DNA of 64,000 nucleotides, taken from Beutenbergia cavernae DSM 12333. Its GTDB lineage: Bacteria > Actinomycetota > Actinomycetes > Actinomycetales > Beutenbergiaceae. Below the pieces are notes generated by a model. It was not told the DNA's origin. It saw only the letters and a program-made list of their open reading frames with translations, and ran no database searches. The position numbers and the translations under genes were made by a program. Positions 44,119 through 57,965 of the stretch are shown here, piece after piece. The first letter of the stretch is position 1; every line of letters starts with the position of its first letter. The stretch lies in NCBI RefSeq assembly GCF_000023105.1, contig NC_012669.1:310001-374000 (forward strand). Direction: 5' to 3'.

Positions 44119-46173
44119 ATGGTCTCTCGACGCGCATTTCTCGGCACGACCGGCCTCGCCGCCACGGGCGCCGTCGCCGCGAGCTGGTTCAGCCCGACGG
44201 CGGCACCGGCGGCGGCCGGGTCCGGCGGACTCTCCTGGGACCGGCGCCGGCTCCTGCCGCGGTTCGCGACGGCGAGACGGTTGCAGGTGGGCGACATCCA
44301 GCACCTGACCGGCGACGAGCAGCTGCTGCTCGGCACCCTGCAGGGCGCCGTCAACCGCCATCGTCCGGAGCTCTACTTCCACTACGACGACGCCGACAAG
44401 CCGTGGCTGTCCTCGATCGACGTCCCGCAGACCGTCCACGAGGACCCGCTGGAGCTGGTCGCCGCGTACGCGGACCGGGTGGCCGGCGCGATCGTGTACG
44501 ACCCGGAGGTGCGGGACTCGATCAACGTGGCGACCACGCTGGCCGGGCTGCGGGGCGCCGTCGTCGCGTCCCCTGAGCTGGCGGCCGCGTACGAGCTGCC
44601 GGTGGTCGACGACCTGCGAGGCCGGTTCACCGGGCAGGACAAGGTGGACATCTACCGGTGGCAGCTCGACGAGCTGTGGCCGCAGTGCGAGCACCGGCTG
44701 CTCACGGGGCTGCCGCCCACGCGCGTGGTGGACGTCGAGGGCGTCACCTGGCGGGAGGTCGCCCGCGAGGCCGAGCAGATCCGGGACGAGTCCAACCGGG
44801 ACCACTACACCGTCGACGTCTCGGCGGAGCTGGGCGGCGAGGCCGTCTATGTGAAGTTCTCCGACGGGTTCGGCAACGACGGCTGGGGCGCCTCGGTCGC
44901 CTCGGTGTCGGTGCTCGCCGACGGCGTCGAGATCGCCGCGTTCGTCCCCGGCAGCCCCGAGGAGGAGCAGGTGCTCGTCGAGGGTGGCAACTCCTCGCTG
45001 GGCGGCGACGGCAACCGGTTCGCCGACGGCGGCAACTTCTTCGTGTACCGGCTCGCGCCCCCGGAGGGCACCACCACCCTCGAGGTGACGGTGGACATGT
45101 GGAACCAGTACGTGGTCAGTGCCACGGACACGGCGCCGACCCGCGTCGAGCCGTTCCCGCACTTCCGCGACTACGTCGTGGCCACCCAGGCGATGGTCGT
45201 GTGGCTCGACCCGAACGGAGAGCCCGGGGAGCTGCTGTCGGAGATCTTCGCGCTCAGCGAGCCGACGACGCCGTACCTCGGGTGGTTCTCCAACGACGTC
45301 GCCGGCGAGTGGGGCGGCGTCGACCTGGCCGCCACGCAGAGCGTGGAGGTGCTCCCCGCTGACTTCTTCGCCAACGGCACGGTGCTGGGCGGCGTCCCGG
45401 CCCGGATCTCGTCTCGCCGGCGCCGGGCTCCGCGGACCGAGCTGACCGACACCGTGTACGTGACGATGACCGTGGGCGAGGGCGACAACCTGCAGTACTG
45501 CCAGCGGCACATGCGCACCCTCTGGGACAACCCGGACCGCGGTGCGGCGCCGACGAACTGGACCATCAGCCCGGTGCTGGCCGACGCCGCCCCGGCGATC
45601 TTCCGGTACTACCAGGAGACCGCCACGGAGAACGACCTGCTGGTGTGCGGGCCGTCCGGTGCCGGATACACGTACGGCGGGTCGTGGCCGCAGGAGGACT
45701 TCGACGCCTACACCGACGTGACCGGCCGGTACCTCCGGGAGACCGGACTCGACCTCGTGTACGCGTACAACAACCGCGACGACGACGGGTGGATCCCGAT
45801 GCCGGAGTGGGTGATCGACTCGTACCGGCGCAACACCCAGCTCGGCGGGATCATGCAGTCCTGGGACGGCGGCGGGGTGATCGCGGCCGGCGACCTGCCG
45901 GTGATCGGCCACTTCAACGCCCCGGGGCAGGCGGTCGAGTTCAAGCAGGGGCTGGACGACTACATCGCCCAGTGGGACGGCACGAGGCCCCTGTTCGTCT
46001 CGGCCGGCATCTTCGCCTGGGGCTGGAACCCGACCGACATCGCCGAGCTGCACCAGCTCCTGGCAGCCGACGACCGGTACCAGGTGCTCCTCGGCCACGC
46101 GTTCTTCGACCTGCTGCGGCGCGCGCCGAACCCGGGCCCGCCGCCCCCGCCGCGGCCCTCCGGCCAGGGCTGA
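44119..46173 (+). CDS. Tat-exported GxGYxYP-domain protein (putative glycosidase)
   Basis: A 684-residue exported protein. The N-terminus has the twin-arginine motif S-R-R-A-F-L-G-T and an Ala-rich hydrophobic stretch, with a cleavage site near residue 33. A GxGYxYP N-terminal-like domain follows (50-210). About residues 225-335 form an inserted beta-rich segment with F-S-D-G-F-G-N-D-G-W-G, then the main GxGYxYP domain resumes, with its signature GPSGAGYTYGG near residue 515. The family is thought to contain polysaccharide hydrolases but lacks a characterised member that I can name. A Pro-rich tail ends the protein. It is monocistronic. Confidence 0.82.
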   Translation: MVSRRAFLGTTGLAATGAVAASWFSPTAAPAAAGSGGLSWDRRRLLPRFATARRLQVGDIQHLTGDEQLLLGTLQGAVNRHRPELYFHYDDADKPWLSSIDVPQTVHEDPLELVAAYADRVAGAIVYDPEVRDSINVATTLAGLRGAVVASPELAAAYELPVVDDLRGRFTGQDKVDIYRWQLDELWPQCEHRLLTGLPPTRVVDVEGVTWREVAREAEQIRDESNRDHYTVDVSAELGGEAVYVKFSDGFGNDGWGASVASVSVLADGVEIAAFVPGSPEEEQVLVEGGNSSLGGDGNRFADGGNFFVYRLAPPEGTTTLEVTVDMWNQYVVSATDTAPTRVEPFPHFRDYVVATQAMVVWLDPNGEPGELLSEIFALSEPTTPYLGWFSNDVAGEWGGVDLAATQSVEVLPADFFANGTVLGGVPARISSRRRRAPRTELTDTVYVTMTVGEGDNLQYCQRHMRTLWDNPDRGAAPTNWTISPVLADAAPAIFRYYQETATENDLLVCGPSGAGYTYGGSWPQEDFDAYTDVTGRYLRETGLDLVYAYNNRDDDGWIPMPEWVIDSYRRNTQLGGIMQSWDGGGVIAAGDLPVIGHFNAPGQAVEFKQGLDDYIAQWDGTRPLFVSAGIFAWGWNPTDIAELHQLLAADDRYQVLLGHAFFDLLRRAPNPGPPPPPRPSGQG

Positions 46174-49040: not shown

Positions 49041-49703
49041 TCAGACGACGCCGGCCTCGCGCGCCAGCAGCGCCGCCTGCACGCGCGAGCTGCACCCCAG
49101 CTTGGCGAGCACGCGGGAGACGTGCGTCTTCGCCGTCGCCTCCGTGATGACGAGCTCGCGCGCGATGCCCGCGTTCGAGAGCCCGCGCCCGAGGCAGGCG
49201 AGCACGTCGCGCTCGCGGTCGGTCAGCTCGGCCAGGCCGTGCGGGACCGCCGGGTCGTCCGAGCCTCCGGGCGCCGGCCCGCGGGCGACGGCGTCGAGCA
49301 CCCGCCGCGTGACCTCCGGCGCCAGGGCACCCTCGCCCGCCGCGACCCGGCGTACGGCGTCGAGCAGAGCCGGCGCGTCGGTCGTCTTGAGCAGGAACCC
49401 GGCGGCGCCCGCGCGGAGAGCCGCGAACACGTACTCGTCGAGGTCGAACGTGGTGAGGACGACGACGTCGGCCAGGCCTTCTCCGACGATCGTCTCCGTG
49501 GCGGCGATGCCGTCGGTCCCGGGCATGCGCACGTCCATGAGCACGACGTCGGGACGGAGTGCGCGGACGTTCGTGACGGCGGCGGCGCCGTCGGCCGCCT
49601 CGCCGACGACCTCGACGTCGCCCGCCTGCTCGAGCATGAGCCGGAGGCCGGCGCGGATCGCGGCGTGGTCGTCGGCGAGCAGGACGCGGATCGGGGTCGA
49701 CAC
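49041..49703 (-). CDS. Response regulator, NarL/FixJ family
   Basis: A 220-residue regulator: receiver domain with Asp-Asp pocket in VLLADDHAAIR, phosphorylation Asp in VVLMDVRMPG and the conserved Lys in FLLKTT; C-terminal LuxR HTH with LTDRERDVLACLGRGLSN. The GTG start is preceded by a -10 box TACGCT (49716-49711 on the minus strand) with 7 bases between, so it is probably leaderless. The likely kinase is the DesK-type gene at 50.4-51.7 kb, separated from it by a membrane protein gene on the other strand. Confidence 0.93.
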   Translation of the reverse strand: MSTPIRVLLADDHAAIRAGLRLMLEQAGDVEVVGEAADGAAAVTNVRALRPDVVLMDVRMPGTDGIAATETIVGEGLADVVVLTTFDLDEYVFAALRAGAAGFLLKTTDAPALLDAVRRVAAGEGALAPEVTRRVLDAVARGPAPGGSDDPAVPHGLAELTDRERDVLACLGRGLSNAGIARELVITEATAKTHVSRVLAKLGCSSRVQAALLAREAGVV

Positions 49704-49765
49704 GCGTTCGAGCGTAGCCGCGGCGCTGCGGACCTCACGTGCCAGGATGCTCGCCGAGGAGGCAC

Positions 49766-50416
49766 ATGTCTGACGACGTCCCCGCGCCCGAGACGCGATC
49801 GGGCCGGCCGGAGTGGTGGAGCCTCGCCGCGGCGATCATCCTCAGCGCGGCGACAGTGGCCTCGGCGTGGAGCGGGTACGAGGCGTCCCGCTGGGCCGGG
49901 GAGAGCGTCCGGTGGAACAGGTCGGCCACGGTCGCCCGGTTCGACGCGACGGCGCAGCTCGCCGCCGCCGACAGTCAACGCATCACCGACGTCGAGGTGT
50001 TCGGCACCTGGTTGACGGCCGAGGTGGCCGGTGACGACGCCCTGGCCGACGCCGTCCGCGAGCGCTTCCGGCCGGAGTTCGTGCCGGCGTTCGACGCCTG
50101 GTTCGCCACCACCGACGACGGGCTCCCGCCGGGCTCGCCGTTCGAGCGGGACGAGTACGTCCTCGCCGCGCAGGAGCAGGCGGACGGCTTCGTCGCCGAG
50201 GCCGAACGGAACGCCCTGCGCGCCGACGACGCCAGCGGGCTGTCCACGGACTACGTGCTGGTCGCCGTGCTGTACGCCTCGGTGCTCTTCCTGGCCGGGA
50301 TCGCGTCGAAGCTGCGCAACGAGCGCGTCGCGCACCTGATGGTCGCGCTGGCCGCCCTCGTGTTCGTGGGTGCGGCGATCGCGATGCTCAGCCTGCCCAT
50401 CACGTTCGGCTCCTGA
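49766..50416 (+). CDS. Three-helix membrane protein of unknown function
   Basis: A 216-residue protein: one helix at residues 18-38 (LAAAIILSAATVASAWSGY), a polar middle domain of about 120 residues that looks helical, then two C-terminal helices (165-185 and 192-210). The word SAWSGYEASRW is shared with DUF4337-like proteins. GAGGAGG precedes the ATG. It sits between the response regulator and kinase genes but on the opposite strand, and its last 17 bases overlap the kinase gene end. A role in the same signal pathway is possible but unproven. Confidence 0.8.
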   Translation: MSDDVPAPETRSGRPEWWSLAAAIILSAATVASAWSGYEASRWAGESVRWNRSATVARFDATAQLAAADSQRITDVEVFGTWLTAEVAGDDALADAVRERFRPEFVPAFDAWFATTDDGLPPGSPFERDEYVLAAQEQADGFVAEAERNALRADDASGLSTDYVLVAVLYASVLFLAGIASKLRNERVAHLMVALAALVFVGAAIAMLSLPITFGS

Positions 50417-51659
50417 CGTCCGCCGGCGGGAGCGGGAGCCGAGCCCGCACGACCCACGTGCCGCCGTCGTCCGCGATCCCCGCCGTGACGGTGCCGCCCA
50501 GCGGCGTCGCGCGCTCGTTCATCCCGATGACGCCGTGGCCCCCGGTGGCCGTGGGCACGCCGGGGCGCGCGCGGTTGCTCACGTCGATCTCGAGGGTCGC
50601 GGCGTCGACAGTGAGGCTCAGCTCGGCCTGCGGGCTCGCCCCGTGCTTCGCCACGTTCGTCAGGCACTCCTGCACGATGCGATAGGCGGTCTGGTCGACG
50701 GCGCGCGGCAGCCCGTGCTCCTGCAGGCTGGCCTCGCCGGTCACCCGGACGGCGACGGCGCCGCCGAGCAGCGCGGGCAGGTCCTGCGTGAGGCGGGGTG
50801 GTGTCGTGCGCTGCTCGTCGGGGTCGTCGTCGCTCTCGCGGGCCCGCAGGATCTCGATGAGGGTGCGCATCTCGGCGAGCGCCGCAAGGCCGCCGGCGCG
50901 CACGGCGGTGAGGGCGGCGCGGTCCCGCTCGTGGTCGGGCGGGGCGGCCAGGGCGGCCTCCGCATGGATGACGACGGCGGAGACCTCGCCCGCGACGGCG
51001 TCGTGCAGGTCGCGTGCCATGCGGGTGCGTTCCGCCTCGACGGCGCTCGTGCGCTCGGCCGCTGCGAGCCGCTCGAGGCTCTCGGCCCGCTCGATCTCGA
51101 GTCGCGCCCGCTCCTCGGCAGCGGCGGCGAGCTCGGCCGCCTGCCGCACGCTGGAGGCCCACCAGATCGGCAGGCCGAGGAGCCCGCCGGTCTGCAGGCC
51201 GAGCGCGAGGACGTCCCGCAGCTCGTTCCCGCCGCGGACGGAGGCCAGGACGATGCCGACCACGATCACGCCCGCGGCCAGGTGGACGGAGCGGCGCAGG
51301 CGGGTCCCACCGAAGCGTTCGGCGGCGTAGATCGCGTCGAACAGGACGAGGGTCACGGCGAAGGACCCGCCGAGGATCGCGTCCGCGATGAACACGACCG
51401 TCGCGACGCCGAGCGTGAAGCCCGGGCGCCGGCGCCGCACCGTCATGGCCGCGCAGCCGACGGCGAGCGGGACCAGGTGCCACGCGGGCGCGACACCGCG
51501 TCCGGGTCCCCAGACGTCCACGAGACCGAGGGCGATCGTCAGGGCTCCGAGCCCGAACAGCCAGACGGCCGTCGTCGGCCCGGCGTCTTCACCGAGGTCG
51601 CGCCACGCGCGCCGAAGCCACACCACCGCACCTCCCAGGGCCTGTGCCATGAGGGTCAT
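50400..51659 (-). CDS. Sensor histidine kinase, DesK type
   Basis: A 419-residue kinase with about six hydrophobic helices in residues 25-165, a coiled-coil linker rich in Glu/Ala/Arg and a HisKA_3 domain with RMARDLHDAVAGEVSAVV, then HATPase with IVQECLTNVAKHG and GHGVIGMNERATPLGG. It is probably the partner of the response regulator at 49.0-49.7 kb. The start is uncertain: ATGs at 51659 and 51650, or a GTG near 51623 that follows GGGAGG. Confidence 0.9.
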   Translation of the reverse strand: MTLMAQALGGAVVWLRRAWRDLGEDAGPTTAVWLFGLGALTIALGLVDVWGPGRGVAPAWHLVPLAVGCAAMTVRRRRPGFTLGVATVVFIADAILGGSFAVTLVLFDAIYAAERFGGTRLRRSVHLAAGVIVVGIVLASVRGGNELRDVLALGLQTGGLLGLPIWWASSVRQAAELAAAAEERARLEIERAESLERLAAAERTSAVEAERTRMARDLHDAVAGEVSAVVIHAEAALAAPPDHERDRAALTAVRAGGLAALAEMRTLIEILRARESDDDPDEQRTTPPRLTQDLPALLGGAVAVRVTGEASLQEHGLPRAVDQTAYRIVQECLTNVAKHGASPQAELSLTVDAATLEIDVSNRARPGVPTATGGHGVIGMNERATPLGGTVTAGIADDGGTWVVRARLPLPPADVRSRT

Positions 51660-51776: not shown

Positions 51777-52853
51777 GTGACCCAGGACCGGCCGCGAGCG
51801 CTCGTGCTGGAGGACGACGCCGACGCCGCCGAGTTCACCCGGATCGCGCTGGAGCGGTTCGGTGGGATGGACGTCGCCGTCGTGGGTACCGCCGGCGACG
51901 CCCTCCGGCTGCTGCGGGAGCAGCACTTCGACATCCTCGTCAGCGACATCGAGCTGCCGGGGCGCTCGGGCCTGGAGATCCTGCCCGAGGTCCGCATGAT
52001 CGACCCGACGCTGCCCGTCATGGTCATCACGGCGCACGGCAGCGTGAGTCACGCCGTCGAGGCGCTCCGGAAGAGCGCCGACGAGTTCCTCGTCAAGCCC
52101 GTGACGGCCATGCAGATCGTGGAGCGGGCCACCGAGCTCGTGCGGTCGGGACGGGAGCGCGATGCCGCAGGGCGCGAGGCGGTCCTCGCGATCGGCGCGC
52201 ATCCGGACGACGTCGAGATCGGCGTCGGTGCGACTCTGGCGGCGCATGCCGCGGCAGGCGACCGTCTGACGATCCTGACGCTGTCCCCGGGCGCCGTCGG
52301 CGGCGAGGTGACCCTCCGGCACGCGGAGGCGCTCGAGGCGGCGGCCGTCGTCGGGGCACGCCTGGTCCATCTCGCGTTCCCGGACACCCGGCTGGATCCC
52401 GCCGACGGTCTCATCACGGCGATCGAGGAGGTTGTCGCCGACGTGCGGCCGGACCGCGTCTACACGCACACGTCCCACGACCGGCACCAGGACCACCGCG
52501 CGGTGCACGAGGCGGTGCAGGTCGCGGCGCGCCAGGTGCCGAGCCTGTGGTGCTACCAGAGCCCGTCGTCGACCGTGCAGTTCCAGCCCAACAGGTTCGT
52601 CGACGTCGACGGCTTCGTGGAGACGAAGCTCCGGATGCTCGCCGCGTACGCGTCGCAGGCACATCGTGACTACATGGACCCCGGCCTGGTGCAGGCGACG
52701 GCGCGCTACTGGTCGCGGTTCAGTCCTGCCCTCGCGGTCGAGCCGCTGGAGACGGTGCGGGCGAGCGAGTCGCTCGCCGCCGCCGCGCAGGCGGTTCGGC
52801 CTGCCCTCGGGGACGTCGAGGTGGAGCACCTTCGCGGGGTCGACGAGTCGTGA
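51777..52853 (+). CDS. Response regulator fused to a PIG-L (LmbE) deacetylase
   Basis: A 358-residue two-domain protein. Residues 6-125 form a receiver domain with Asp13-Asp14, phosphorylation Asp57 in LVSDIELPG and Lys107 in LVKPVT. Residues 135-330 form a PIG-L/LmbE zinc deacetylase: AHPDDVE (141-147) gives the metal His and Asp, and HDRHQDH (234-240) the second metal/catalytic motif. The output of this two-component system is thus an enzyme rather than DNA binding. PIG-L enzymes deacetylate GlcNAc-type sugars, as in mycothiol or glycolipid synthesis. It overlaps the kinase gene by GTGA. A TAGGGT box at 51736-51741 may be the promoter, and GGGGG precedes the GTG. Confidence 0.92.
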   Translation: MTQDRPRALVLEDDADAAEFTRIALERFGGMDVAVVGTAGDALRLLREQHFDILVSDIELPGRSGLEILPEVRMIDPTLPVMVITAHGSVSHAVEALRKSADEFLVKPVTAMQIVERATELVRSGRERDAAGREAVLAIGAHPDDVEIGVGATLAAHAAAGDRLTILTLSPGAVGGEVTLRHAEALEAAAVVGARLVHLAFPDTRLDPADGLITAIEEVVADVRPDRVYTHTSHDRHQDHRAVHEAVQVAARQVPSLWCYQSPSSTVQFQPNRFVDVDGFVETKLRMLAAYASQAHRDYMDPGLVQATARYWSRFSPALAVEPLETVRASESLAAAAQAVRPALGDVEVEHLRGVDES

Positions 52854-54589
52854 ACAGCGCTGCCACCCGGACCGCGGAGAGCGTCCGGCTTCCGGCGATC
52901 ATCTCCCGCTGGTTCGAGCCGACGGCGGTGGGGCTGCGGCAGGTGCCGCTGACGGTGAGCTACGCCCTGGTGCTCGCTTCGATCACCGTCACGCACGAGG
53001 TCGGCCACACGGTGCTGCTCGTGGTGGGCGCACTGATCGTGCTCGCGGTCCAGCTCATCGGCAGCCTCGGGCGCTGGACGCAGTGGTCGCCGTGGCAGTA
53101 CGCGCTGCCGCTCGCCCAGATGGTCGCGCTCGTGCTGCTCGAGCTGGGCGCCGGCGTGGAGCGCAGCTACTTCCTCAGCCTCGTGTTCATACCCGTGGCC
53201 AGCCTCGCGCTCCAACCGGGCCTGCTCGGCACCGTCCTCGCGATCGCCGGCGCGACCGCCGTCATCACCCTCGGAGTGACGACGAACCCGGACATCGAAG
53301 GCACCCCGCCCGCGATCCGGGTCTTCGTGGTCGGGATCGTCGCCGCGTTCGTCGCGATCGGCACGCACGGGGCGACTGACGCCCTGCGACGGCAGGCCGA
53401 CGACCTGACATCGGCGCGCGACGAGCTGACGGCGCGCGCGAAACAGCTCGTCTCCTCGCGCGACCTGCTGCGCAGCGTCATGGCCGCCGCGACGGAGCAG
53501 GCGGTCGTCGCCACCGACGCCGACGGGACAGTGGTCGCCGTGAGCACCGGGGCGGAGCGGATGTTCGAGCGTCCGCAGGACGAGCTCCTCGGCACGTGCG
53601 TCGCTGATCTCTTCCCGCCGGGCGCGGCGGATCCGGGGGGGCCGGCGCCGGCGCGCCCGTGGGCGCGCGTGGCCGCCCTCGTCGCGGCGGCGACGGCAGA
53701 CGGTGCGACGTCAGCGGAGCGCACCCTCACCCGGCGCGACGGATCGGCGCGGGCGCTGGAGGTCGTGGTGACGCGCCGACCTCCGTTGTCGGACGAGCTC
53801 CCGGCGCCCGCGCCCGGGTACCTGTTCGTCGCGACGGACGTCACCGCACGGCATGAGGCGGAGCGCCTGCAGGACGAGTTCATCGGCCTCGTGAGCCACG
53901 AGCTGAGGACCCCGCTCTCCTCGATCCTCGGCTACGTCGAGCTGCTGCAGCTCGGTGGCGCCTTGAGCGGAGAGGACGAGACGTACGTCGACGTCATCGA
54001 CCGCAACGCGCGTCGCCTCCTGCGGATGGTCGACGACCTGCTCACGAGCGTGCAGCTCACGGCGGGAACGTTCACCTTCCTCCCCGAGCAGGTCGACGTC
54101 GTCGGCGTGGTCCGCGAGCTCGTCACGGACATCGAGCCGACGGCGCGGCGCGCCGAGGTCCAGGTGGTCGTGGCGGGCGACGACGCCGTCCCGCTGCGCT
54201 CCGATCCTGGGCGCCTGGGGCAGGTGGTCGGGAACGTCCTGGGCAACGCCGTGAAGTTCAGCGCGCGTGGAGCCACAGTGACGGTGAAGGTCACCGGTCT
54301 GCTCGGTGCCGACGGCCGGCGCCGCGCGCGGATCGTCGTGACCGACACGGGCAGCGGGATCGCCCCGGACGATCTCGCGCGGATCACCGAACGCTTCTAC
54401 CGCTCGAGCGACGCCCGCCGACGTCGCGTGCGCGGCGTCGGCATCGGGCTGTCGGTCGTGCAGGCGATCGTGGACGCGCACGGCGGCACGATCACGATCC
54501 GGTCGCAGCCGGGAGAGGGCACAGTCGTCGAGATCGACCTGCCGGACCTGACCGGCCGACCCGCCCCCGCGGCGTCGCCAGCCGAGTGA
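52850..54589 (+). CDS. Membrane sensor histidine kinase with PAS domain
   Basis: A 579-residue kinase: about six helices within residues 30-175, a short coiled coil (178-205), a PAS-like domain (207-335), HisKA with His350 in LVSHELRTPLSSILGY and an HATPase domain with the N-box VVGNVLGNAVKFSA and G-boxes TDTGSGIAPDD and GVGIGLSVVQ. The gene overlaps the REC-PIG-L gene, so it is the obvious kinase for Asp57 of that protein. It is convergent with the exopolysaccharide-like cluster, 31 bases away. Confidence 0.94.
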   Translation: MNSAATRTAESVRLPAIISRWFEPTAVGLRQVPLTVSYALVLASITVTHEVGHTVLLVVGALIVLAVQLIGSLGRWTQWSPWQYALPLAQMVALVLLELGAGVERSYFLSLVFIPVASLALQPGLLGTVLAIAGATAVITLGVTTNPDIEGTPPAIRVFVVGIVAAFVAIGTHGATDALRRQADDLTSARDELTARAKQLVSSRDLLRSVMAAATEQAVVATDADGTVVAVSTGAERMFERPQDELLGTCVADLFPPGAADPGGPAPARPWARVAALVAAATADGATSAERTLTRRDGSARALEVVVTRRPPLSDELPAPAPGYLFVATDVTARHEAERLQDEFIGLVSHELRTPLSSILGYVELLQLGGALSGEDETYVDVIDRNARRLLRMVDDLLTSVQLTAGTFTFLPEQVDVVGVVRELVTDIEPTARRAEVQVVVAGDDAVPLRSDPGRLGQVVGNVLGNAVKFSARGATVTVKVTGLLGADGRRRARIVVTDTGSGIAPDDLARITERFYRSSDARRRRVRGVGIGLSVVQAIVDAHGGTITIRSQPGEGTVVEIDLPDLTGRPAPAASPAE

Positions 54590-54620: not shown

Positions 54621-55850
54621 TCAGGACGTTCCAGGCGGGTTCCAGACCGCTGCGAGCGCCGCCCAGTGCTCGGCCGACATCATCGAGTACGGCGTGACGT
54701 TGACGGAGGTGATGCCGTTCGTCGCCGCCCGGCGTACGGCGCCCGCGAGCTCCCCCGGTTCGATCGAGGTCGGGTCGTCCGCTCTCCCCTTCCACAGCCC
54801 GACCGACATCGTCAGCCGGGACATGTCGTACCCGGCCTCCGCCAGCGCCGCCGTCAGCGACTCGACGTCGTCAGGACTGCGCTGAACCGGGCCGATGTAC
54901 ACCCAGACGACGAGCCGGTCGGCTACCTCCAGCAGGGTGCTGTAGTCGTGGCCGCTGTCCGGCCGGCCGGCCGCCGGGTCCGTCCAGTCGACGCGCACGT
55001 CCGCGCTCAGCTCGATCTGCTCCCCTCGGCCCTCGCGGACCTCGTCCAGCGCCGCCCGGACCCGGCTGAGCAAGCCCGCGACGACGTCGGAACGCCACGT
55101 CCCGATCAGCGGGGAACCGGTGTCGATCGTCCCGTCCTCGTTCCGTGGCCAGTCCGCTTCCTGGGTCATCTCGCGGAACAGGTCGAAGTCCTCCTCCCCG
55201 AACGTGAAGCGGTCGAGGTTCAGCTCGGTGAGCTCGATCGCGTTCGGGTCGTACCGCTCGCCGAGGGCAGCCGCGTAGTCGGCGATCCGCTCGCCGACCT
55301 CGCCCCGCATCAGCTGGGTGGCGGATGCCACGTGCGTGGAACGGACACCGTTCGCGTCGATGCCGGCGAGCGAGGGATCCTCCTTGATCAGCTCGGGGGT
55401 GTAGGCGTCGATGATGAGGTTGATCTGGCGGGCGACGCCGTCCTGCGACTCGTGGAGTGCGCGGGCGGCCACGGCGAGGTGGTCGGTGCCCGGCTCCGCC
55501 GCGTACTGGGGATAGGCGGGCCAGTCGAACGCGGTGAACTCGATGCGGCCCGCGTTGAGGTGGACGGTGGTCGCGTCGACCTCGTCCAGCCGTGCGGCGA
55601 CCGCGTCCCAGTCGGTCTCGTCGTCGACGACGACGTCGAAGTCCAGGCTGATCGACCGGACCTCCTCAGGCGGTGCCGCCGGACGGAACGACGGCAGCGC
55701 GTCCTCGTCGACCCACGGCCGGGCGAGCACGACGCCCACGCCGACGAGCGCCACCACGGCCGTCAGGACGACGACGGCGGTGAGGCGTCGTCGTCGTCGT
55801 CCACGAGCCCCTTCACGGACACCGTCCCGCTCCGGTCGAGCTTGTTCCAT
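54621..55850 (-). CDS. Membrane-anchored glycosidase-like protein
   Basis: A 409-residue protein with a basic cytoplasmic start, one helix (about 23-45) and an extracytoplasmic TIM-barrel-like domain. Landmarks are SISLDFDVVVDDETDWDAV, TTVHLNAGRIEFTAFDWP, IIDAYTPELI and AIELTELNLDRFTFGEEDFD, with carboxylates placed as in GHL-type domains. It recalls the hydrolase half of PgaB, but lacks a deacetylase domain. Its first 88 bases lie within the 3' end of the glycosyltransferase gene, so the two are coupled. Trimming or export of the polymer made by the synthase is a reasonable guess. Confidence 0.75.
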   Translation of the reverse strand: MEQARPERDGVREGARGRRRRRLTAVVVLTAVVALVGVGVVLARPWVDEDALPSFRPAAPPEEVRSISLDFDVVVDDETDWDAVAARLDEVDATTVHLNAGRIEFTAFDWPAYPQYAAEPGTDHLAVAARALHESQDGVARQINLIIDAYTPELIKEDPSLAGIDANGVRSTHVASATQLMRGEVGERIADYAAALGERYDPNAIELTELNLDRFTFGEEDFDLFREMTQEADWPRNEDGTIDTGSPLIGTWRSDVVAGLLSRVRAALDEVREGRGEQIELSADVRVDWTDPAAGRPDSGHDYSTLLEVADRLVVWVYIGPVQRSPDDVESLTAALAEAGYDMSRLTMSVGLWKGRADDPTSIEPGELAGAVRRAATNGITSVNVTPYSMMSAEHWAALAAVWNPPGTS

Positions 55851-57049
55851 CGCTGCTCCGCCCCGCCGAGCTCCAGCCGCACGGCGTCGATCGTCACGAA
55901 CGTCATCATCGCCGAGTACAGCGGCCACAGCGGGACGGTCCACAGGAAGCGGAGGTCGCCGGGGGCACGGTCGAGAGCGATCGCGAGCAGCAGCAGGGCC
56001 AGCGACAAGGGGATCCCGAGGAACAGCACCCACGGCCACAGCCCGGACGGCAGCCAGCTCGTGCCGTCCGTGAGGACCAGCACAGCCAGGACGACGACCG
56101 CGAGGACCTGGACGAACGGCAGGACCAGCTGGGCGAGGGTGTTGTAGGCAAGGTACGGCCCGAAGAAGCCGTACCGCGGGTTGCCGATCGTCCGCCGGTG
56201 CAGGTCGGTCGTCTGCAGCAGGCCGCGTGCCCAGCGCACGCGCTGCCGCCACAGGCCGCGCAGCGTCGACGGCGACTCGGCATGCACCAGTGCCCGGGGG
56301 GCGAACGTCACCCGGTACCCGCGCTCGTAGATCCGCCACGTGAGCTCGAGGTCCTCGCCGAGCGTGTCCGTGCGGAACGGGCCGGTGCGCTCCAAGACGT
56401 CGCGCCGGAACGCTCCGACGTTGCCGGAGACGATGGGGAGGGCGTGCACGACGTCGAGAGCCCGGCGCATGAGGCCCGTGCCGACGTGGCTGATGAGGGC
56501 GAGGAGCTTGGTCTGGACGCGGTCGAGGTTCACCGGGCGGTCGTTCCCGCAGACGGCCCCGACGCGCTCGTCCCGGAACCCGCGCAGCAGCTCTGTGACG
56601 GTGTCCGGGCGGAACAGGCCATCCGCGTCGACGAGCAGCAGCACCTCGCCGTGGGCGGCGGCGATGCCCGTGTTCAGGGCGGCGCCCTTTCCGGCGTTCG
56701 CCTGCCGGATCGCGCGGACCGAGGGGTGCTCGGCGGCGAGGCCTTCCATGAGTGCGAACGTGTCGTCCGTCGAGCCGTCGTCGACGCACACGACCTCGAG
56801 GTGGGGGTGATCGCTGCGCAGGATCGACCGCACGCAGTGAACGATCACCACTGCCTCGTTGTACGCCGGCACGACCACGCTCACGTGCGGTGGTTCGGGG
56901 AACATCGGGCCGACGTCGTGGGGGCCGCGCGGTGCGCGTCCGTACCGAGCCTCGAACACGAGCGCGAACGGCGTCAGCAGGAGCCGGAGGACCCCGACGA
57001 CCAGCAACGTGATGCCGAAGACGAGCGCGACCGAGGTGAGGATCGCCAC
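55763..57049 (-). CDS. Membrane glycosyltransferase family 2, PgaC/HAS-like
   Basis: A 428-residue processive-type GT2. N-terminal helix, then the GT-A domain with SVVVPAYNEA, VDDGSTDDT, the metal site VDADGLF and LGEDLELTWR, and the product-channel motif RQRVRWARG (QxxRW). Three to four C-terminal helices follow. It should polymerise a hexosamine or glucose polymer across the membrane. It starts at GTG 7 bases after the ATP-grasp gene and overlaps the glycosidase-like gene. The tail, rich in Asp and Ser, lies in the overlap. Confidence 0.9.
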   Translation of the reverse strand: MAILTSVALVFGITLLVVGVLRLLLTPFALVFEARYGRAPRGPHDVGPMFPEPPHVSVVVPAYNEAVVIVHCVRSILRSDHPHLEVVCVDDGSTDDTFALMEGLAAEHPSVRAIRQANAGKGAALNTGIAAAHGEVLLLVDADGLFRPDTVTELLRGFRDERVGAVCGNDRPVNLDRVQTKLLALISHVGTGLMRRALDVVHALPIVSGNVGAFRRDVLERTGPFRTDTLGEDLELTWRIYERGYRVTFAPRALVHAESPSTLRGLWRQRVRWARGLLQTTDLHRRTIGNPRYGFFGPYLAYNTLAQLVLPFVQVLAVVVLAVLVLTDGTSWLPSGLWPWVLFLGIPLSLALLLLAIALDRAPGDLRFLWTVPLWPLYSAMMTFVTIDAVRLELGGAEQRWNKLDRSGTVSVKGLVDDDDDASPPSSS

Positions 57050-57056
57050 GCCGTCG

Positions 57057-57965
57057 TCACGTTCCCCAGGTCCCGAGCACGGCGTCGAGGAGCTCCGGAG
57101 CGTGCGCCGACACCGCCCCGAAGCGGGCGTTGACCTCGAGCAGGACGGGGATGCCGTCCGCGTCGCGTCGCACGTCCATGTCGAGCGGCCCGACCAGGCC
57201 GAGCGCGGCTGCGGCGTGGGCGGCGACGTCGGCCGCGTCGATCGCCTCGCCGTCTGGTACCCGGGTCACGGTCGTGGCATTCCCGACCCTGCCCTCCTTG
57301 CGCCCCGTCTTCTCGAGGAGGACGACGACGGTGCCGCCGTCCCCAGGAGCGCGGTAGAGCTGCGGGCTGTACTCGACGCCGGGTGCGAAGGTCTGGACGA
57401 TCCAGGAGCCGTCGGTCGCCGACCAGTCGTCGTCCGCATGCTCGACGACGCGGACCCCGCGCCCGCCGCGGGCGACCCGCGGCTTGACCACGACGGGGCC
57501 GCCGGCCCAGTCCAACGCCTCGCCCGCGGAGCCGAACGCGCTCGCCGGAGCGAAGCGGGGGACCGGCACGCCTGCGCGCTCGAGTGCCCACATCGTGAGG
57601 AGCTTGTCGGCGGCGACGGCTGTCGGCCCCGGGGGCGACACCACGATCGGGCCGCCGGCCGCTGTCGCGAGCACCGACAGCTGGGGCAGCTCCTCCGACA
57701 CGGTCGGGACGACGAGCTCGGGCCTGTGTCTCCGTACGAGGTCGAGGGTGTGGGCGTCGTAGTCGGGGTCGGCAGCGGCAGGAACACGTTCGATCACGTC
57801 GAACGCGCTGTCCGTGACGGGCGCCATGTCGACACCGACGAGGCGGAGGCGCGCGCCGTCGACGCGACGCCGCGCGAGCTGGGCGCCGAGGCTCCGACCT
57901 GCCGGGCCACCGATCCCGGTGATGAGCACGGTGCGCACGGGGTCGGAGGAGGAGTCGCTCTGCAC
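57057..57965 (-). CDS. ATP-grasp domain ligase
   Basis: A 302-residue ATP-grasp protein: N-terminal Rossmann-like part with LITGIGGPAGRSLGAQLARR, then the ATP-binding lysine strand GGPVVVKPRVARGGRGVRV and the metal-binding C-terminal Glu/Asn in VLLEVNARFGAVS. It resembles the PylC/carbamoyl-phosphate-synthase-like ligases that join a carboxylate to an amine or other nucleophile. As first gene of an operon with a GT2 polymerase it may make an amino-acid-modified sugar precursor. It begins at GTG with a -10 box 6 bases upstream. Confidence 0.88.
   Translation of the reverse strand: MQSDSSSDPVRTVLITGIGGPAGRSLGAQLARRRVDGARLRLVGVDMAPVTDSAFDVIERVPAAADPDYDAHTLDLVRRHRPELVVPTVSEELPQLSVLATAAGGPIVVSPPGPTAVAADKLLTMWALERAGVPVPRFAPASAFGSAGEALDWAGGPVVVKPRVARGGRGVRVVEHADDDWSATDGSWIVQTFAPGVEYSPQLYRAPGDGGTVVVLLEKTGRKEGRVGNATTVTRVPDGEAIDAADVAAHAAAALGLVGPLDMDVRRDADGIPVLLEVNARFGAVSAHAPELLDAVLGTWGT

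What the first reader, a model, noticed from the sequence alone, without database searches (positions are those of the whole stretch)
51777..52853. Receiver domain fused to a PIG-L deacetylase
The protein has a complete receiver (Asp57, Lys107) and a complete zinc deacetylase site (AHPDDVE and HDRHQDH). The enzyme should thus be switched by phosphorylation from the overlapping kinase. Most response regulators bind DNA; an enzymatic output acting on a GlcNAc-type substrate would be a direct signal-to-chemistry route.
Basis: partly seen in the sequence, partly recalled or inferred. Interest (0 to 1): 0.7.

Follow-up and report, generated by a model that had tools for sequence, protein, structure and literature searches.

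The report
Kinase-linked sugar deacetylase in glycan cluster
This gene encodes a bacterial phosphorylation switch fused to a sugar-deacetylating enzyme; it sits beside its likely sensor kinase and genes that look like an exopolysaccharide machine, suggesting that the cell may turn a step of sugar-polymer chemistry on and off directly rather than through gene expression.

Summary
ORF 51777-52853 (+) encodes a complete receiver (D13, D14, D57, T85, K107) fused by a short helix to a complete PIG-L zinc deacetylase domain (H142, D144, D145, H237, H240). It overlaps a membrane histidine kinase gene by 4 bases.

The fusion is a conserved family in Actinobacteria and Proteobacteria. In 69 non-redundant fusion loci the usual partners are an ATP-grasp ligase (60), a processive GT2 synthase (52) and a PHP protein (47). 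Of 61 loci with D57 and K107 intact, 50 carry a kinase nearby; of 8 that lost K107 none does. Phylogenetically this is only about four independent cases.

In the window the ATP-grasp, a PgaC-like GT2 and a protein with the fold of the PgaB glycoside hydrolase lie convergent. Relatives of those genes elsewhere stand with a membrane-anchored PIG-L, so an unregulated deacetylase appears to have been replaced by a kinase-linked one. The genome has no GGDEF or PilZ hit.

Most likely this is phospho-control of a cytoplasmic deacetylation step in exopolysaccharide synthesis. Switching itself, and the substrate, are inferred. It is a new variant of enzymatic response regulators; nine literature searches found no paper describing it.

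The parts
51777..52853 (+). receiver-PIG-L fusion protein, 358 aa
51795..52136 (+). receiver domain (about residues 7-120); D57 codon 51945-51947, K107 codon 52095-52097
   Evidence: Pfam Response_reg 85.3 bits; residue check; model strands and helices
52179..52790 (+). PIG-L domain (about residues 135-338) with H142, D144, D145, H237, H240
   Evidence: Pfam PIG-L 90.3 bits; conservation; Foldseek to BshB/BC1534
52850..54589 (+). membrane sensor histidine kinase, 579 aa: hydrophobic N-terminus, PAS, HisKA (HELRTP), HATPase_c; start overlaps the fusion's stop by 4 bases
54621..55757 (-). glycoside-hydrolase-like protein, 378 aa, no Pfam match, probably exported (relatives have lipoprotein-like N-termini by eye); predicted fold closest to the PgaB C-terminal hydrolase domain
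55763..57049 (-). GT2 membrane glycosyltransferase, 428 aa, with DDGS, DAD, GED and QRVRW motifs; 35% identity to E. coli PgaC over 244 residues
57057..57965 (-). ATP-grasp ligase, 302 aa

Best explanation
A membrane histidine kinase (52850-54589) phosphorylates D57 of the receiver. The change at the receiver is passed through the short, rigid link (helix 5 runs into the first PIG-L strand) to the attached zinc deacetylase, switching it on or off. The enzyme removes an acetyl group from an N-acetylated amino sugar on the cytoplasmic side. That product (perhaps nucleotide- or lipid-linked, perhaps then acylated on the freed amine by the ATP-grasp ligase) feeds or modifies a glycan made by the PgaC-like processive GT2 synthase and trimmed outside by the PgaB-hydrolase-like protein. 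So a two-component signal acts directly on exopolysaccharide chemistry, at a place where c-di-GMP acts in known synthase-dependent systems. Shown: both active sites complete and conserved; the kinase linkage; the conserved partners; the hydrolase fold (predicted). Inferred: phosphotransfer from this kinase, the sign of control, the substrate, the role of ATP-grasp, and that the product is an exopolysaccharide.
For: Receiver residues D57, T85, K107 and the PIG-L site are invariant in 14 aligned fusions; PIG-L residues H142, D144, D145, H240 intact in all members of the 74-locus set whose region is complete, H237 to N in two. K107-to-H142 distance is 29-37 residues in 42 of 42 fusions, 35-37 in 36 of them. 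Kinase nearby in 50 of 61 D57/K107-intact loci and 0 of 8 K107-lost loci. Two-gene units of fusion plus kinase alone (L088, L090, L091). Partners in 69 fusion loci: ATP-grasp 60, GT2 52, PHP 47; QxxRW in 53 of 53 GT2. Window GT2 35% identical to E. coli PgaC. Convergent neighbour's fold: PgaB C-terminal hydrolase first by Foldseek and by VIA-align, Z 30.6, 325 aligned, 2.8 A, next other fold Z 26.1. TPR proteins beside GT2 in three proteobacterial loci. No GGDEF and no PilZ match in the genome. Module replacement in window, L075 and L107.
Against: No biochemical data. Phylogenetic control of the kinase association leaves 4 independent pairs, 2.4 agreeing on average, none opposing: not significant. 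Eleven of 61 intact-receiver loci show no kinase in the stretch, and G335, G085, G547 and G759 have no kinase of this kind genome-wide at E<=1e-60. Known deacetylases of synthase-made polymers act outside the membrane, whereas this one has no hydrophobic segment. The hydrolase resembles PgaB in fold only (hhalign probability 0.4%). Minimal loci lack GT2 and ATP-grasp nearby.
Confidence: 0.5

Rival explanations
1. The receiver controls where or with whom the deacetylase works (dimerisation, docking on the GT2 or kinase at the membrane), not its catalytic rate. Phosphorylation recruits a constitutively active enzyme.
For: In sister operons the N-terminal module at the same position is two or three hydrophobic segments (by eye) that would tether PIG-L to the membrane, so the N-terminus may serve location; pTM 0.73 with pLDDT 91.5 leaves the domain arrangement unsure.
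Against: The K107-H142 spacing is nearly fixed, which suits direct coupling better than a free docking module.
Confidence: 0.22
2. The receiver is mainly a phosphate sink, relay partner or kinase-feedback element, and the PIG-L enzyme is constitutive.
For: Several operons add one or two stand-alone receivers between GT2 and kinase, and one locus (L141) has four kinases on one strand; receivers in eight members lost K107 while the enzyme stayed intact.
Against: The fused receiver is retained in nearly the whole clade (69 of 70 rows including degenerate ones), even in two-gene units without stand-alone receivers.
Confidence: 0.15
3. The cluster makes a small molecule or lipid-linked saccharide (as in mycothiol or bacillithiol: GT, PIG-L, then ligation to the amine by the ATP-grasp enzyme), not an exopolysaccharide; the receiver controls its synthesis.
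For: Best named family for the PIG-L domain is BshB1, 86.9 bits, below cut-off; closest solved folds include BshB and MshB; GT + PIG-L + ligase is the logic of those pathways (recalled); PIG-L and ATP-grasp look cytoplasmic.
Against: GT2 carries QxxRW in 53 of 53 proteins and is PgaC-like; a PgaB-hydrolase-like protein and TPR proteins accompany it.
Confidence: 0.25
4. The fusion is a decayed or non-functional joining, of no regulatory meaning.
For: Receivers decayed in eight members.
Against: Conservation across two phyla with both sites intact in most.
Confidence: 0.05

Closest known systems
Response regulators with enzymatic output (CheB, GGDEF/EAL types, PorX; archaeal REC-GT2 protein MTH_548)
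   Same: Receiver joined to an enzyme instead of a DNA-binding domain. PMC5847659 section 14 (read) describes receivers fused to metabolic enzymes, among them a cellulose-synthase-like GT2 domain. PorX is in the Foldseek list. CheB and GGDEF/EAL types are recalled.
   Different: Output is a PIG-L (GlcNAc-PI de-N-acetylase type) zinc hydrolase; I found no paper describing that.
BshB1 / BcZBP / MshB deacetylases (PIG-L family)
   Same: Same fold and zinc motif; BC1534 and BshB are among the top Foldseek matches.
   Different: 86.9 bits against a BshB1 cut-off of 182.5; carries a receiver; operon partners differ.
PNAG (pgaABCD / ica) synthase-dependent exopolysaccharide system
   Same: PgaC-like GT2 (35% identity) and a protein with the PgaB C-terminal hydrolase fold; deacetylation is central to PNAG (PMC6307706, passages).
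   Different: No CE4 deacetylase gene seen in the cluster; deacetylase is PIG-L and without a hydrophobic segment; an ATP-grasp ligase is present; no PgaA- or PgaD-like gene noted in the window cluster; control by a receiver rather than c-di-GMP (no GGDEF or PilZ).
Pseudo-receiver proteins
   Same: Eight members have receivers without K107, as in the pseudo-receivers of PMC12632262 (passages).
   Different: The window's receiver is complete.

Membership tests
Response regulator (PF00072 receiver) | Curated family match above cut-off | tested here: met
   85.3 bits against 30.2
Response regulator (PF00072 receiver) | Acidic pair, phospho-acceptor Asp, Thr/Ser, Lys | tested here: met
   D13, D14, D57, T85, K107
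Response regulator (PF00072 receiver) | Phosphotransfer from a histidine kinase | not testable with these tools
   Adjacent complete kinase; no assay possible
PIG-L / LmbE deacetylases (PF02585) | Curated family match above cut-off | tested here: met
   90.3 bits against 28.2
PIG-L / LmbE deacetylases (PF02585) | AHPDD and HxDH zinc and catalytic residues | tested here: met
PIG-L / LmbE deacetylases (PF02585) | De-N-acetylase activity on an amino sugar | not testable with these tools
   No assay; a hydratase, GalB, shares the fold
BshB1 bacillithiol deacetylase (TIGR04001) | Score above curated cut-off | tested here: not met
   86.9 against 182.5 bits
PgaC/IcaA PNAG synthase (TIGR03937), window GT2 | Score above curated cut-off | tested here: not met
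   181.6 against 422.3 bits; 35% identity to E. coli PgaC over 244 residues
GH153 (PgaB C-terminal hydrolase), window 54621-55757 | Fold | tested here: met
   VIA-align Z 30.6, 2.8 A over 325 residues, first of the 50 entries shown; predicted model, pLDDT 87.3
GH153 (PgaB C-terminal hydrolase), window 54621-55757 | Sequence-profile similarity | tested here: not met
   hhalign probability 0.4% against E. coli PgaB alone
GH153 (PgaB C-terminal hydrolase), window 54621-55757 | Catalytic Asp (D474 of Bordetella PgaB) and aspartates of the -3 site | tested here: inconclusive
   By eye only: PgaB IDLDYVYD and FHDD beside SLDFDVVVD and FDD or NLD of this family; L075 lacks the latter; residues of PgaB from PMC5933820 passages
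pga/ica PNAG operon | Extracytoplasmic CE4 deacetylase in the operon | tested here: not met
   The one PF01522 match in the genome lies about 240 kb away from the fusion

The most novel reading that the evidence does not exclude
A broadly distributed class of exopolysaccharide machines in Actinobacteria and Proteobacteria whose amino-sugar chemistry is gated by phosphorylation of a receiver fused to a cytoplasmic PIG-L deacetylase, doing by His-Asp phosphotransfer what c-di-GMP does in PNAG, cellulose and Pel systems. In some lineages the kinase-linked deacetylase has replaced a membrane-anchored, unregulated one in an otherwise PNAG-like operon.
Probability: 0.33. Interest if true: 0.82.

Novelty: new variant of a known kind. 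Interest (0 to 1): 0.62.

Why it matters
If true, a two-component signal changes surface-glycan chemistry in one step, without transcription and without c-di-GMP. It would give a function to a conserved but apparently undescribed operon (receiver-PIG-L, ATP-grasp, PHP, GT2, kinase), and a simple in vitro test: one soluble two-domain enzyme, one kinase, one acetate-release assay. Natural variants (intact receiver, K107-lost receiver, membrane anchor, no N-terminal domain) are ready-made controls.

Tried and rejected
Rejected: that the fusion is an artefact of gene calling or a private oddity of this genome. Rejected as family names: BshB1 and PgaC (below cut-offs). A profile comparison of the hydrolase with E. 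coli PgaB gave nothing, and its profile matched no PDB sequence at E<=1; only the fold links them. A tree of receiver domains was too short to decide one or several fusions: 7 label changes, 3 forced by starred branches. The sign test on independent pairs has no power. In the viral collection only three PIG-L relatives without the receiver part appeared. Literature: searches listed no paper; 52 and 89 listed one and three, none about such a fusion by their listings; 32, 53 and 82 listed broader papers.

Errors of mine: the reference string also held the antisense translation P0002 (positions 1-358 unaffected; repeated clean); the row L031 was cut wrongly (its residues are right). Kinase presence is scored by a profile built from two kinases (score 100 or more anywhere in the fetched stretch), so contig ends (L132, L136, L140 among them) can hide a kinase. 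Searches scored only the 5 best candidates per genome. Before the 69-row count, four identical loci (L111, L112, L148, L151) and one fragment (L152) were dropped from the 74. L099 (both domains degenerate) is in the tree as 'noREC' and not in the 69.

Full report
Observation. Frame 51777-52853 (+) gives 358 aa, with Pfam Response_reg at 9-117 and PIG-L at 137-250, both far above their cut-offs. D57 and K107 complete the receiver (with D13, D14, T85); the PIG-L motifs are AHPDDVE 141-147 and HDRHQDH 234-240. By analogy with solved PIG-L enzymes (recalled) H142, D145 and H240 bind zinc, D144 is the base and H237 assists. The kinase frame at 52850 starts inside the fusion's last codons; it has a hydrophobic N-terminus, PAS, HisKA with HELRTP, and HATPase_c. 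AlphaFold2 gives both domains with confidence (pLDDT 91.5, pTM 0.73); helix 5 of the receiver (111-130) runs into the first PIG-L strand at 135. Foldseek finds BC1534, BshB and TT1542 for the enzyme half and ordinary receivers for the other.

Distribution. In 39 genomes (own plus relatives) one other genome has the full fusion in the listing (52% identity). Among 396 genomes drawn from the order, 21 have a full-length match, and among 396 from the phylum 3, the window's genome being one in each (my count of rows spanning both domains). A scan of named genomes (80 best loci kept) shows the fusion in Cellulomonas, Promicromonospora, Microbacterium, Leifsonia, Leucobacter, Blastococcus, Solirubrobacterales, Thermoleophilia and Ilumatobacteraceae, and in Proteobacteria and a myxobacterium: Legionella, Marinicella, Burkholderiales, Lysobacterales, Rhodospirillales, UBA1660. 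In a tree of 118 PIG-L domains the receiver-bearing rows (61 with D57 and K107, 8 without K107, plus one divergent paralogue L099) stand on one side of a branch with support 100/99. The receiver tree is too poorly resolved to prove one fusion.

Conservation of function-bearing residues. In 14 aligned fusions D13, D57, T85, A86, K107, P108 and H142, P143, D144, D145, E147, H237, Q238, D239, H240 are invariant. In the 74-locus set, all members whose region is complete keep H142, D144, D145 and H240; two have N for H237. The distance K107-H142 is 29-37 residues in all 42 fusions aligned, 35-37 in 36 of them. So the enzyme is under strong constraint everywhere, the receiver in most lineages.

Kinase linkage. 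A kinase of this type lies in the fetched stretch in 50 of 61 non-redundant loci with D57 and K107, and in 0 of 8 that lost K107 (Fisher 9e-6). Related rows are not independent: only 4 independent pairs exist, on average 2.4 agree and none opposes, so the tree-aware test has no power. Genome-wide, this kinase is absent (E<=1e-60) from four genomes with degenerate receivers (G014, G007, G302, G261), but equally from four with intact receivers (G335, G085, G547, G759), which must then use another donor or none. Three loci (L088, L090, L091) are just fusion plus kinase; some add stand-alone receivers between GT2 and kinase.

Operon context. In the 69 fusion loci an ATP-grasp protein is present in 60, a GT2 in 52, a PHP-domain protein in 47. 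Typical order: fusion, ATP-grasp, PHP, GT2, kinase, often with 4-base overlaps. All 53 GT2 proteins have QxxRW, a mark of processive synthases (recalled). Three proteobacterial loci (L132, L134, L143) have a TPR protein next to the GT2, as PgaA, BcsC and PelB are in known systems (recalled).

The window's own arrangement. Fusion and kinase (+) face a convergent set on the minus strand: 54621-55757, GT2 55763-57049, ATP-grasp 57057-57965. The first has no Pfam match. Its AlphaFold2 model (pLDDT 87.3, pTM 0.87) has the PgaB C-terminal hydrolase as closest solved fold: Foldseek ranks 1-6, VIA-align Z 30.6 over 325 residues at 2.8 A, the next other fold at Z 26.1. Sequence profiles do not connect them. 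PgaB's hydrolase (GH153) cleaves deacetylated PNAG (PMC5933820, passages). The GT2 is 35% identical to E. coli PgaC over 244 residues but has under half the bit score that the PgaC model demands.

Module replacement. The window's GT2 and ATP-grasp are 59% and 53% identical to those of L032 and L036, but 33% and 31% to those of the L031 operon that carries the other fusion. L032 and L036 have the order PIG-L, ATP-grasp, GT2, hydrolase-like gene, and their PIG-L has hydrophobic N-terminal segments instead of a receiver (by eye). In the window that membrane PIG-L is missing: the genome has one match to the fusion at E<=1e-20, itself, while such membrane forms match it at 1e-37 to 1e-42 in relatives. 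The window, L075 and L107 (Promicromonospora soli) are the 3 of 69 fusion loci with the hydrolase-like gene, and all three have it convergent to fusion plus kinase. The simplest reading is that a kinase-linked deacetylase took the place of an unregulated, membrane-bound one in the same pathway. This is inference from gene content; absence from P. soli's whole genome was not tested.

Mechanism. Best reading: kinase phosphorylates D57; the receiver acts on the attached PIG-L domain; deacetylation of a cytoplasmic N-acetyl amino sugar then feeds or alters the glycan. The ATP-grasp enzyme may acylate the freed amine, as ligases do in mycothiol-type pathways (recalled). The genome has no GGDEF and no PilZ match, so the usual c-di-GMP control of such synthases is unlikely here. 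The weak point is topology: known polymer deacetylases work after extrusion (PMC6307706, passages), whereas this protein has no hydrophobic segment; so the substrate should be a precursor or nascent chain, or the product is not a polymer. A CE4 deacetylase exists elsewhere in the genome and could act outside.

Known or new. Enzymatic response regulators are a known kind; PMC5847659 (section 14 read) even cites receivers joined to a cellulose-synthase-like GT2. I found no paper on a receiver-PIG-L protein (open-licence papers only). A 2010 census of response-regulator outputs (recalled) was not held, so an earlier mention in a table cannot be excluded. A paper on PIG-L and biofilm in Clostridioides difficile was seen only as a listing (PMC12613277). 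Verdict: real, conserved, functionally suggestive; a new variant of a known kind, with an apparently undescribed operon as the larger finding.

Noticed in passing
window 49041-51626 (-): A NarL/LuxR-type response regulator (49041-49703) and a HisKA_3 kinase (50400-51626 or to 51707) lie just upstream, pointing away from the fusion, with another gene (49766-50416, +) between them; a second two-component system next door.
   Followed up: no
window 44281-46173 (+): A GxGYxYP putative glycoside hydrolase (PF14323, 217.6 bits) about 5.6 kb upstream.
   Followed up: no
L033, L034, L097, L149, L094, L143, L145, L146: PIG-L fusions whose receiver lost K107, mostly with other pocket residues too, while the enzyme site stays intact: natural pseudo-receiver enzymes.
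   Followed up: partly
L099:8102-9313 (-): Paralogue with both receiver and PIG-L sites altered (HPED and DQDPHH in place of the motifs) in genome G080, which also has an intact fusion.
   Followed up: no
L141:7905-17392: Fusion followed on one strand by three small receiver-type genes and four histidine kinases.
   Followed up: no
L032, L036, L100, L101, L154: Operons PIG-L, ATP-grasp, GT2, PgaB-hydrolase-like gene without any receiver; PIG-L has hydrophobic N-terminal segments where read (L032, L036): possibly an undescribed PNAG-like system of actinomycetes.
   Followed up: partly
L084:4309-5074 (-), L086:12553-12900, L092:4521-4910: Stand-alone receivers between GT2 and kinase in the fusion operons, hinting at a relay or sink.
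   Followed up: no
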